Positions 33,808 through 47,362 of a stretch of DNA of 64,000 nucleotides are shown here, one piece after another. Within the stretch, counting starts at the first letter, position 1. Every line of letters begins with the position of its first letter. Source of the DNA: Sipunculus nudus. Its lineage: Eukaryota > Annelida > Sipuncula > Golfingiida > Sipunculidae. The position numbers were made by a program, and so were the translations under genes. The notes below the pieces were generated by a model. That model did not search any database and was not told the origin of the DNA. It was given only the letters and a program-made list of their open reading frames with translations. The DNA lies in the NCBI GenBank assembly GCA_026874595.1, contig CM049317.1, forward strand, positions 53,835,618-53,899,617, given 5' to 3'.

Positions 33808-36800
33808 CTGTAAATATATTGATAAGACAATCAGTCTGTATAGATACCTTACATCAGTGAGGTCACAATCCTAATCTAGCAAATAAAATAGATCATAAGA
33901 AACCAACAACATAGAGCAGGTGAATAATTGTTATGCTTACTGGTCAGGGCATAATATGTTAAATTGTACACACTTGTAGAAAATTATGTACAATGTTTTT
34001 AAATTTTTTTTTTAAAGTTAACATGAAAAACATGAAATTTTATTTTTTCGCATGTAGCAATATGCATATATACAAAATTTGCATTTTATTACAGGAAATG
34101 ATTTCTTTGAAAGAATTGGCCAAGAACAGCCTTTAGAAACAAAAATACAAGGGACTCATTTTACAAAAGATCCATGAAAAAAGAGCAGCTATATATTCAG
34201 CAGAGTAGTTATTTTTTTGTGTGATTCAACGGGTGAATGTTGTTTGCTTCTAAATGCGGCTATTCTTCAATCAATAAAAACGGCAGGTTGATTTTGGATA
34301 AAAGAGATGTTAAAACAACTATATTTTAATGTTGAAATACAGGAGAAAGTACGGAAGCGTATTGCTGGCACCTAGTAAAAGAAAAATAAATTATTTATCT
34401 CGTACGTACGACATAGTATCTCGTACGTACGACATATTATCTCGTACGTACGACATACTATCTCGTACGTACGACATACTATCTCGTACGTACGACTTAT
34501 TATCTCGTACGTACGACATATTATCTCGTACGTACGACATACTATCTCGTACGTACGACATATTATCGCGTACGTACGACATATTATCTCGTACGTACGA
34601 CATACTATCTCGTACGTACGACATAATAAAGACTACATAATTCACAGACTACAAAACAGACCAGCTGATATATGTATAAGCAATATATATATATATATGT
34701 GTGTTAAATAATGTATGTTCTCCACCTCCTTGCAAACAGTTTGAACACCGTTGAAACGAACGTATATATATATATTTATTTATTTATTTATTTATATATA
34801 CTATATATTTAAATGCTATTCGATTATATCATTTTTCTGTGTCTGGGTTTCTGAAATATTTCAAGGAAGCGAAATATATCAAGTCGTTGTCTGCAGGTCA
34901 TATACAGAACTTTCATTTTTAGATAGATGATTAAATTCTGTTGGCAGCGTATGATGTTAAAATGATGAGCCTGTCATAGTATTAATAAAAAGAAATATTG
35001 CCTTTGCCAAATTGAAAAGAAGAGGACAGCTACCAAATAGCCTAATTTTTAGTGTTTGAGTATTGTGCAGTTTTCTAATATTCATAATTGATCTAAAAAT
35101 TAGATTTTTGATATAACGCACGGTGTAGTGGATAGTTAAAAATATTAAATGTATATACAACTATTGATATAATATGTGGGTAGCGGAACAGTCCACAACC
35201 CATTTTGTGCGGTACATATAATTTATTTTTTTATTTGAATTAAATAAAAAAAAAAATATTAAAGACTATAACTCATGGAAATGCGATTAATCTGTGAAAG
35301 AAGAATACAAATTAATATACAAGTATTTTGTTCATATGTCAGGCTGAAGAGGTGGTAAAGCCTACACCTCAGATCGGTTTGATTTGCGGATAAGTATAAA
35401 ATCTTATATGTGGTACATGTACGTGTAACTTGTCCTACTACTGTAGACACCATGAAGTTAAACTTATGGGATCAAGCACTCCGTTTCATAATTAACATAG
35501 GAATCATTAATCTCTCCTTATTGGCATCTTTGTATTACAGACACCTCTGTAAGTGACACTTAAGGTTCATATTCATTTGCAATAATATGTGTATTGTTTC
35601 ACGTTATTAACTCATTTTGGGTGAAAACGAAAGTTGTCCAGCAAATCCATGCCGACACACAAGCTTAATATCTCCTGTTCACTGGTTTTATACGTTGTCA
35701 TGGTTCTGTCTGTGAGTTAACACAGTCCTCGTGTCTGGTAACCATTACAAGACCCCTTGACTAGAGGCAAGATCTTAGTTGAGCACAAGCGAAATTTATA
35801 AAAAAGAGAACAAACATGAAAAATGAAACACCTGGAGAAGCTAGAAAATCTTGATTTTTGAAGTTGGGTTGTACGTCCAACAGGTCGCGTGATCGCTGTT
35901 TGTTTTTCATCATTCATCGCACCCGTGGCAAGCCTTTTTCTACTTGCGTAACGGATTTAGCAAACGGTTTTAGAACGAAATATTGAAAGATACCGTAATA
36001 TTTAAGGAGACTACACTGTATTTCATATAATATGTGTAATATGTGAGTAAATGATATATGAAATAACCTGACTGATGGATTAATATGGAGTAAAATATAG
36101 TGGTTTATTTTTTATTTATTTTGGAGGGGTCGAAAAAAGCAATTTATTTGAGCAAATATGAATGCAATGACAGTATGCTAAGCAGTGGTATAATGATGAT
36201 AAGGCTATTTGTTGAAGGATCTATAGTGTATGGAAAACTGCAAGAGTTCAATTTGACAGATACAAGGTTATGATTAACTATGCTGATGCGGGGATTTATG
36301 AATTTGTGACTGTATGACATAATATCTTGAAAAGATCGGTCTTGACGAGGTGCATTATTTTGATGCCCCTCACATCTACATATTTCACAATATTGACATA
36401 ATTTCTGGCATGTACATAGGTACCTGGTCAACAGTACTGAACCACCTGGAAGGTTAAAATCTTAAAAATATGATGAAATGTAGATAATGTTTGAGAGGAA
36501 GAGGTAATCTGGGCCATGGTTGGTTTATATTATTGAAGGAAATGTTGCAAATAATATTAGAGACCTGACCATGCCTTTCCATTGGTTACCTTTTTGATAA
36601 GCTGTTGACAGTTCAACAGTTTACACATTTGTCTATTGAGATCCAATTTATTTGGTAAACCCTTTTCATCAATTTTATGATATGTATACAGTTGCCATAA
36701 CGTCCCAATTCCACAGGTGCAATGACTTGATGGAGTAATAACGCCTCTGTCTCTCTGTAGATATTTCTTTAATTATTAAATTTTATGGTATAGCCATAGA

Positions 36801-37223
36801 ACTATTGCTCACAGTGCCCAGGAGCAAAGCCTCAGTGGGATGAAGAAGGGGATGGTGAGAGTTACAACACCCTTGCATATACATACAGGATATGAAATTT
36901 AATTCAACAGTGCTTATAAAAAAAGGTTTATTCATGAACTTTAAATATTTAAAACAGACAGAAATATGGAGAAACAAAGCAAATAATTTTTTCCCCATTC
37001 TACTGAGCCAAGAAATAATTAACAATATTTGCATTTATTCCTTTTTTTCATTACATAATTTTAATCCAAGTTTCCAAATGTTACTATAAATTTACAGTAT
37101 AACATACATGTGATTGTGAATATTTCAGTTAATTCACATTTCAAAATTGCATCAACATTTATAGATAATGTATCTAGTTTATAGTACCTGTCAACAGAAT
37201 GGGATGGAGGGAGGAAGGGAGGC

Positions 37224-44600: not shown

Positions 44601-47362
44601 CTGATTTTATATTTATGCTAATAACTTAAAAAATAAAATTTGAAAAATTCAGAACTAATTTTGGGAATACAATTGAATCTTGATAAAATTAAATTTTATA
44701 TCCCGGGCAAAAAATCTCTACCTTCAGCAATTTTCATGTTAAGAGAGTAAATATATTTCTTGATTTTTACAAAGTGAATTATGTTTTGGTCTAGAACTTA
44801 AAACAATTACACAATACTGACATCATTTCTGGCATATGCATAGCGAATGTATAGAAACATATGTATATTATATATGATCATAGTCAGATCAGTGGTTTTG
44901 ATATTAGGCAATCTTAAAGTGTAACAATGGGTTTTTAATGGAAAAATGAAGTTTTTTCTCAATATCTCGAAGGAATGCAGTCCTAGTGACCAAACTTTTA
45001 GTATGGTAGAGGATTTGGGGGACATCTAACTGTATGCAAAATTTAGAACTTAGAGCTGAAGCTGGGGAACTGAGATCTAATAAACTGCATAACACTAGCT
45101 TGATGTAAACAATATGCGACATGGTGCTTGAAAACTTGAATAAAATCTACAGTTTTTGATCAACTGGTTTCAAATTTTTTGTTTTAACAGTTGAAATGGT
45201 AACAAAATCATGCTTTGAAAATTTAATCTACAGCAGTTACAGGAAAAAAACGTGCCATGGTCAAACTTGGGCAAAATTTAAGGTACCAATTTTATACTTT
45301 TGCCAATATTTAAAAAGATTTAACAGATTTTGATCTAATTTTTGGTATACAATTAAATTTTGAAAATTTTAAGTAGTATTACTGAAAAAAAAGTCCCTAC
45401 CTTTAACACTTTTGGTCGTAAGTGACCAAATATTTTTCCTCATTTTTTTACAAAGTCCATTATGTTTGGGCCCATAACTTTTTTAAATTAAAAAAGACTT
45501 AATTTCTGGCATGTACATAGGAACCATATAGAGGAATATTTATGGTTAAAATGAAGAAAACCAGATGAGTGGTTTTGATATTAGGCAGTCCTGAAGTGTG
45601 AAAATAGATTTCTAATAAAAAATTGAGGTTTTTCCTTAATATCTCAAAGGAACGAAGTCATACTGACCCAATTTTTGGCATGGTAGGAGATTTTGGGAAC
45701 ATCTAACTGTATGCCGAATTTCAGATTCGTGGGTCCAATGGTGTCGAAACGTGCCAGTCTTACGGACGGACATCCGGACAGACGGACGGACGGAAGGACG
45801 GACGACGGAAAAATGGACCACGACTATAGCTCAGATGACTTATAGTCAGCTGAGCTAATGAGAGTTCTGTGTATGACTGGTAGACAATGTAGATTATATG
45901 TCGTACGTACGAGAAATTATGTCGTACGTACGAGATAATATGTCGTCCGTACGAGATAGTATGTCGTCCGTACGAGATAATATGTCGTCCGTACGAGATA
46001 ATATGTCGTACGTACGAGATAATATGTCGTACGTACGAGATACTATGTCGTACGTACGAGATACTATGTCGTACGTACGAGATACTATGTCGTACGTACG
46101 AGATAAATATTTTTTTTTCTTTTACTAGATGGCAGCAATACGCTTCCGTAAGAAAGTAACTATGCACCAACTGGAGTCCTATTAGTATCTCAACTAAAAA
46201 TCAATAGATCACATAACCCGTGGCTACCCGTGAATATAGGTTGAAATATAAGGTTTTAGTTCAAACTTTTAAATCAATACATGATCTTGTTGGTGAACTA
46301 GTGCAGCGGTACCAGCAGGCATGAGCTTTAAGATCAGCCTCTTGTGCACAATCAAAAGCGCAACCCTCAAGAACTATTATACATATAGAAATATATCGTC
46401 TCAAACTTCAGCTCCCATATTACAGGCTGAAATTTCTAGTCATCGGAGATGAACATTCCTTTTCTGTCTTTAATAAATCTTTTAAAGACTAATTTTTAGT
46501 AGGAACATTTTGTATATTTATAGCGCCTGAGGTGTTGAATAATAGAGCACAAATATCGCATCTTTTGACATCACAGTGTACACTCCACCTGTTTTGAGAT
46601 TTTTTTTAAAATATACTTGCAATATTGTTTAATCTAGGTTAAATTTACAATTATCAGAATATATTTAAATGTTACACACTAAAATTAATTCTTATTCATT
46701 TATTATTTCGATAATATACTGATAAATATGTGTTACTTACGGCTCTAACTTAGTCTCAGTGTAGCAGGAAGTGGAGAAGCGACCCGGAGGGAACAGAAAT
46801 GGCCCAACACTTCCTCCATCTGTAATCACTATAGAAAGAGTGAAATGACGTAAAATCTCTTGTGCCGAGGACGTGGAGGTCAAGAAGCCAACAAAAGAAA
46901 GCTCACATATCCGAGGTCATTTCGGATCAAAACTACGATAATCTTTTGTTTTTGGTTTGTTTGTTTGTTTCTATCAATTTACCTATGCAATTAGAAAATA
47001 GTTGTCCACATTTACAAATTATGACATTTTAACCGATAAGGATATAGGCAGAGAAGTTGTAACGATCCGCTTACGGTCAACACACTTTGTCTGTTCCATG
47101 TCAGTGCAGCATCGGGGCTGGTAGTTCATCTCACAGCAGGCTGTCATCTCCTTTGGCATTTTAGGCATGGGGCATTGCTTTGGATATATGGATATATTTG
47201 GATATTTCTTGTCCTTGGGGCAGATTGTGGGTGTTCTTGCAGAGACGCCGAGCAAACATTCTTAAAAACAAAAAAGTCTTACACTAAAGACCGTGCTGTC
47301 ATCTGTGGGGCGAAGAAGGAACTACAATTTATTTATATATTTTACATATAAAATATGTATAT

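What the first reader, a model, noticed from the sequence alone, without database searches (positions are those of the whole stretch)
34350..46150. Unassigned 11.8-kb TIR element proved by an empty paralogous site
The two ends are inverted repeats beginning TACGGAAGCGTATTGCTG, flanked by AGAAAG on both sides. The duplicated locus at about 56,290-56,310 reads straight through ('caagagaaaataactatg') with one copy of the near-identical target. This gives exact boundaries, a 6-bp duplication and the order of events (insertion only in copy 1). No transposase of its own was seen; the only one inside belongs to a nested Harbinger. A 6-bp duplication is known for a few superfamilies such as Maverick/Polinton, but no polymerase, integrase or capsid genes are seen, and the end sequence fits none I can name.
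Basis: partly seen in the sequence, partly recalled or inferred. Interest (0 to 1): 0.85.

Follow-up and report, generated by a model that had tools for sequence, protein, structure and literature searches.

The report
Non-autonomous IS3EU-like transposon with nested insertions
The 11.8-kb element is a small jumping gene without its own enzyme, swollen by two other mobile elements that landed inside it; it belongs to a large family whose likely driver, a 22-kb element with a transposase gene, was found elsewhere in the same genome.

Summary
Inverted ends at 34350 and 46150 are flanked by AGAAAG, and the paralogous site near 56297 is empty. The 18-bp end occurs 211+211 times in the genome (reversed-pattern control 0). 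Of 50 fetched copies with both ends, 41 have an exact 6-bp duplication (shuffled pairs: mean 0.8, maximum 4). "An 11.8-kb element" is misleading: 9,830 bp is a nested, 5'-truncated high-copy repeat that itself holds a Harbinger; only 1,971 bp is the element's own. The relatives are 1.3-8.9 kb (32 of 50 are 3.0-4.6 kb), and none matched the candidate transposase. Two loci on different chromosomes have such ends about 22.1 kb apart and hold a DDE integrase-type transposase domain (Pfam rva_4). Their left flanks predicted the right-hand duplications, and both were then found exactly. TA..TA termini, TACGG..CCGTA ends and 6-bp duplications match published descriptions of IS3EU. Next to both TIRs lie arrays of a 21-bp unit: 20 conserved, nearly palindromic bases and one free base, probably phased protein-binding sites. 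Only 1.7 kb of the 22-kb copies was read, so their cargo, and the tree position of the transposase, remain open.

The parts
34344..34349 (.). left target site duplication AGAAAG
34350..34394 (+). left terminal inverted repeat, TACGGAAGCGTATTGCTG...
34395..34625 (+). array of 11 units of 21 bp (20-bp near-palindrome TATCTCGTACGTACGACATA plus one free base)
34626..36028 (+). left part of the non-autonomous element; together with TIR and array 94% identical to L037 1-1661
36029..37354 (+). nested high-copy repeat TE2, first part; 5'-truncated compared with 9 of 9 genomic copies printed
37355..43379 (-). Harbinger nested in TE2; TSD TTA (left copy TTG); its site is empty in the three TE2 copies printed
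38357..39472 (-). Harbinger DDE transposase frame (DDE_Tnp_4, E 1.6e-34)
40671..41252 (-). Harbinger Myb-like protein frame (Myb_DNA-bind_5, E 1.7e-14)
43380..45858 (+). nested repeat TE2, second part; 40 of 40 scored genomic candidates match, most at 93-96%
45859..45890 (-). right part of the non-autonomous element; with array and TIR 96% identical to L037 3517-3811
45891..46106 (-). right array, 10 units of the 21-bp repeat, inverted relative to the left array
46107..46150 (-). right terminal inverted repeat ending CGCTTCCGTA
46151..46156 (.). right target site duplication AGAAAG
56297..56302 (.). empty paralogous target (AGAAAA) in copy 2 of the local duplication

Best explanation
The feature is one non-autonomous copy of an IS3EU-like DNA transposon family. 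A transposase made by a rare autonomous element (two 22.1-22.2-kb copies on other chromosomes) would recognise the shared TIRs and the 21-bp arrays, pair the two ends and insert them with 6-bp staggered joining. Shown: the same TIR and arrays in the small copies and in the C17 22-kb copy, the same 6-bp duplication rule, and a DDE-type transposase domain inside two 22-kb units that have their own duplications. Inferred: that this transposase moves the small copies, that the arrays are its binding sites, and that the cut-and-paste route is used. After it landed in copy 1 of a local duplication, the window copy was most simply hit by a 5'-truncated repeat (TE2), with loss of about 1.85 kb of the element, and then by a Harbinger inside TE2.
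For: Family and TSD. Window copy against L037: 94% over 1,690 bp and 96% over 295 bp. Nested structure; none of the 50 relatives carries these inserts inside. Autonomous candidates: rva_4 hits lie 20,830 and 20,890 bp to the right of exact TIRs on C10 and C17. Their left flanks differ. The duplications read on the left (ATCAGC, AGTTCT) predicted the right ends, and both were found exactly at C10:16873360 and C17:22635644 among 15 matches to one degenerate pattern (reversed control 7 matches). The C17 copy has the TIR at both ends and 16 and 12 units of the 21-bp array. Transposase fragment: rva_4 E 2e-25, above cut-off; rve E 0.0031 and IS481 family transposase E 0.0015, both below their cut-offs; D, D and E by motif, chosen by eye, at 83, 142 and 182. 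Literature on IS3EU.
Against: Between the C17 22-kb copy and the small copies only TIR and arrays were seen to be shared; the bases just inside the arrays differ. Only 1,724 letters at the two 22-kb loci were read, so nested elements within them cannot be excluded, and identity of the two copies was seen only over 851 bp. The transposase tree was not made. No alpha-kinase gene, which the TET-carrying fungal IS3EU elements have, lies in the 22-kb intervals. The rva_4 match carries one TGA within the matched stretch; it may lie in an intron. The exact 16-mer expected at the C10 right end also occurs once on C7. Other rve-type hits lie within 30 kb of listed TIRs (at least five by eye; see Tried and rejected) and were not followed.
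Confidence: 0.8

Rival explanations
1. The 22-kb units merely carry the rva_4 gene as a passenger or nested element; the family is moved by another, unseen transposase.
For: Only two close transposase places and one diverged one were found, and the 22-kb interior is almost unread. The sequence just inside the arrays is not shared with the small copies.
Against: Both units carry the gene at the same place, about 0.7 kb from the right end. The protein is of the IS3/IS481-related kind expected for TA..TA termini and 6-bp TSDs.
Confidence: 0.15
2. The family belongs to Maverick/Polinton, which also makes 6-bp duplications.
For: 6-bp TSD; a weak rve integrase match.
Against: No polymerase B or capsid was named among the frames scanned. 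The ends are TACGG..CCGTA, as reported for IS3EU. The transposase matches rva_4 and weakly IS481.
Confidence: 0.02
3. TE2 and the Harbinger were already inside the element when it inserted here, so a larger unit jumped as a whole.
For: The duplications enclose everything, so the order cannot be read from this locus alone.
Against: None of the 50 relatives carries TE2 or this Harbinger inside; the simplest order is outer first, inner later.
Confidence: 0.1

Closest known systems
IS3EU (IS3EU/GingerRoot) DNA transposons, as described in PMC10045372 and PMC12730594
   Same: TA..TA termini, TAYGG..CCRTA ends, TIR longer than 30 bp, 6-bp TSDs, DDE transposase with weak similarity to the bacterial IS481 family
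   Different: Autonomous-type copies of 22 kb; paired arrays of a 21-bp near-palindrome just inside both TIRs; no alpha-kinase match in the two copies
Styx of Zymoseptoria (IS3EU-related; PMC10853768, passages read)
   Same: 6-bp TSD and 36-bp TIR used in its search; four coding sequences including a DDD/E transposase; copies with degenerate transposase genes also move
   Different: New full-length insertions are about 7.9 kb; fungal; no 21-bp arrays mentioned in the passages read
IS481EU (PMC10045372, passages and one section read)
   Same: Related integrase-like transposase
   Different: TSDs of about 4, 15 or 25 bp
Maverick/Polinton
   Same: 6-bp TSD (stated in PMC10045372)
   Different: Different end sequence (recalled); no polymerase or capsid named in the frames scanned

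Membership tests
IS3EU | TA..TA termini | tested here: met
   TACGG..CCGTA in the window copy and in the C17 22-kb copy; the 50 fetched copies have it by selection
IS3EU | 6-bp target site duplication | tested here: met
   41 of 50 exact; window copy AGAAAG; both 22-kb copies exact
IS3EU | TIR longer than 30 bp ending TAYGG..CCRTA (fungal description) | tested here: met
   TIR about 45 bp before the array; description
IS3EU | DDE transposase related to IS3/IS481 | tested here: inconclusive
   Autonomous-type copies only: rva_4 E 2e-25 (integrase core); rve 0.0031 and IS481 model 0.0015 point the right way but are below their cut-offs
IS3EU | Transposase clusters with named IS3EU proteins in a tree | not tested
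   No IS3EU reference protein was at hand
IS3EU | alpha-kinase gene opposite the transposase (TET-carrying fungal members only) | tested here: not met
   Three alpha-kinase matches, all on C2, none in the two 22-kb intervals; not stated as a rule for all IS3EU
Maverick/Polinton | DNA polymerase B, capsid and retroviral-like integrase genes | tested here: inconclusive
   Not named among the 23 frames scanned: 3 of the window copy, 18 of relatives, 2 of the consensus; interior of the 22-kb copies unread
Harbinger (nested element only) | DDE_Tnp_4 transposase, Myb-like protein, 3-bp TSD | tested here: met
   the TSD has one mismatch (TTG/TTA)

The most novel reading that the evidence does not exclude
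A 22-kb, cargo-sized IS3EU-like transposon that carries long phased arrays of palindromic operator sites at both ends, used as a multi-site platform for transposase binding, and that drives several hundred small copies sharing only these ends.
Probability: 0.4. Interest if true: 0.6.

Novelty: new variant of a known kind. Interest (0 to 1): 0.45.

Why it matters
It turns an unassigned element into a family with a testable driver: a transposase candidate, defined ends and hundreds of potential substrates in one genome. The arrays look like a clean case of constraint on binding sites: across 898 counted units 20 of 21 bases are held and one is free. It also warns that a pair of TIRs with a perfect duplication can enclose mostly foreign, probably later, insertions.

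Tried and rejected
Polinton/Maverick: disfavoured on ends and on the frames scanned. Autonomous copy among the 50 fetched: tblastn of the 242-aa transposase fragment against all loci then held and the window gave nothing at E up to 1. 17 of 50 copies have stretches of 150 bp or more that few others share. Of these, L016 holds a LINE (reverse transcriptase), and the centre of L020/L027 is another repeat (40 of 40 scored candidates matched). L012 looked LINE-like to my eye, but Pfam did not support it. The others were not identified; 14 frames of 7 copies plus 4 of L012 were scanned, not all frames. Of the consensus frames printed, two were scanned.

PF00665 and PF13683 searches show only 150 of 4,779 and 150 of 2,794 candidates, mostly frames that look like Gypsy polyproteins, plus a few small contigs with bacterial-type frames. 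No listed hit falls inside the two 22-kb intervals; the transposase there scores too low on these models to be listed. By eye at least five listed hits lie within 30 kb of a listed TIR: C15 (2.6 kb, a 1,721-aa frame), C8 (10.5 kb), C3 (18 kb), C8 (20 kb) and C4 (27 kb). I estimate about two by chance; they were not followed. Alpha-kinase: not in the 22-kb copies. PDB search of the fragment: four interferon-gamma chains at E 0.009-0.23 and no integrase, judged spurious. A fold prediction was not attempted. Literature searches holding IS3EU. The passages and sections that I read mention neither such arrays nor a 22-kb IS3EU; subscription papers are mostly not held, and the identifier I tried for the GingerRoot paper, from memory, was not held.

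Choice of the 50 copies: all 30 pairs visible on C1-C3 in the 18-mer list (the tool lists only the first 100 of 422 ends) and 20 of 21 further CTAG-subfamily pairs. The nine copies without an exact duplication had 1, 1, 1, 2, 3, 3, 4, 4 and 5 mismatches; L016 and L027 become exact with an inner end.
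Full report
Observation. The ends are as described: TACGGAAGCGTATTGCTG at 34350 and its reverse complement ending at 46150, flanked by AGAAAG. The two ends match over 255 bp at 94.5%. Copy 2 of the local duplication reads through with one near-identical target, AGAAAA at 56297-56302.

It is a family. The exact 18-mer occurs 211 times on each strand of the 1.43-Gb genome and its reversed control never. A 23-mer with up to two mismatches occurs 346 times on each strand, control 0. 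A subfamily with CCACCTAG, to which the window copy is closest, has 48 + 44 exact 37-mer ends. I fetched 50 copies in which both exact ends lay within 10 kb: all 30 pairs listed on C1-C3 and 20 of 21 further CTAG pairs. In 41 of 50 the 6 bases outside the two ends are identical. Other lengths from 2 to 10 gave at most 4 of 50, and shuffled pairings gave mean 0.8, maximum 4 in 1000. Two more copies are exact if an inner end is chosen afterwards. The sizes run from 1.3 to 8.9 kb, 32 of 50 between 3.0 and 4.6 kb.

The window copy is small and interrupted. Against L037 (3,811 bp) it matches 1-1661 at 94% and 3517-3811 at 96%. The 9,830 bp between are in none of the 50 relatives; only the flanks of L026 match a part, because L026 sits in a copy of the same repeat. 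The piece 43385-45855 matched 40 of 40 scored candidates, most at 93-96%, of 14,171 first-look candidates. The piece 36035-37350 likewise (40 scored of 3,096). In 9 of 9 copies printed, this repeat continues upstream of 36029, so the window copy is 5'-truncated. Between its two pieces sits a Harbinger, 37355-43379, with TSD TTA (left copy TTG); the site is empty in the three TE2 copies printed. About 1.85 kb of the outer element is missing at the TE2 junction, most simply lost when TE2 inserted (inference).

Search for the driver. tblastn of the candidate transposase found nothing in the 50 copies or the window, and the frames scanned from the window copy, some relatives and the consensus gave no transposase apart from the nested Harbinger's. 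A search for Pfam rva_4 gave 64 matches at E up to 0.1 (150 of 158 candidates scored). I chose this family from recall, after PF00665 and PF13683 lists were filled by other frames. Two of the matches, on C10 and C17, lie 20,830 and 20,890 bp right of exact TIRs. About 0.2 such neighbour pairs are expected by chance, before asking for the same offset. The left flanks of the two TIRs differ, giving expected duplications ATCAGC and AGTTCT. A degenerate pattern of 10 TIR bases plus these duplications had 15 matches (reversed control 7). One is C10:16873360 with ATCAGC and one is C17:22635644 with AGTTCT, each about 0.7 kb right of its transposase hit; the ATCAGC 16-mer also occurs once on C7. The units are 22,114 and 22,196 bp long. 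The C17 copy has the same TIR at both ends (CCACCTAG left, CCACCTGG right) and 16 and 12 units of the same 21-bp array. An 851-bp piece of its transposase region has one near-identical second place, on C10, and one diverged relative on C6.

The protein. The 242-aa fragment matches rva_4 (E 2e-25, above cut-off) and, below the cut-offs, rve (0.0031) and the NCBIfam model of IS481 family transposases (0.0015). By motif, chosen by eye, the acidic residues are D83, D142 and E182.

The arrays. In 102 ends (50 copies and the window) a walk that accepts units with at least 15 of 21 matches counted 898 units; this rule favours conserved units. Positions 1-20 are each 96.5-99% conserved; position 21 is T 369, C 273, G 160, A 96. 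The 20-mer is self-complementary at 18 of 20 positions. In the C17 22-kb copy positions 1-20 show 4 mismatches of 320 in the left array and 0 of 240 in the right one, while position 21 is 12 C/4 T and 8 C/4 T. The family background is 2.4% mismatch to the column majority, so the free base was probably variable in the active lineage. A 21-bp pitch is two helical turns (recalled), so phased binding of a dimeric protein is the natural reading; this is inference.

Classification. PMC10045372 states that complete IS3EU families always have TA..TA termini and usually 6-bp TSDs (section read). PMC12730594 describes fungal IS3EU with 6-bp TSDs, TIRs over 30 bp and TAYGG..CCRTA ends (section read). These are met here; the tree was not made. 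New full-length insertions of Styx, an IS3EU-related fungal element, are about 7.9 kb (PMC10853768, passages read), so 22 kb is large, with the caveat that its interior is unread. No alpha-kinase gene of the fungal kind lies in it.

Limits. Mobilisation of the small copies by the rva_4 protein is inferred, not shown.

Noticed in passing
window 36029-37354 and 43380-45858: High-copy repeat (TE2) with no long frame, internal degenerate duplications, and a 3' end ..CAGCTGAGCTAA; class not determined.
   Followed up: partly
window 41618-41775: A 79-bp adjoining inverted repeat (96% complementary) next to a (TA)n run inside the Harbinger.
   Followed up: no
window 17268-18711: Eight tandem copies of a unit of about 180 bp.
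   Followed up: no
window 32739-53894 and 54760-64000: Local tandem duplication, pieces mostly 82-92% identical.
   Followed up: partly
G000 C106, C110, C118, C128, C135: Small contigs with the strongest rve hits in frames of 226-322 aa, perhaps bacterial IS3 transposases from contamination.
   Followed up: no
G000, many contigs: A multi-copy family of 355-aa and 379-aa frames matching rve_3 positions 17-66, not seen near the listed TIRs; possibly another integrase-type transposon.
   Followed up: no
L012: A family copy whose left TIR is followed within 30 bp by other sequence (LINE-like to the eye, no Pfam support) instead of the array, with an intact 6-bp duplication.
   Followed up: partly
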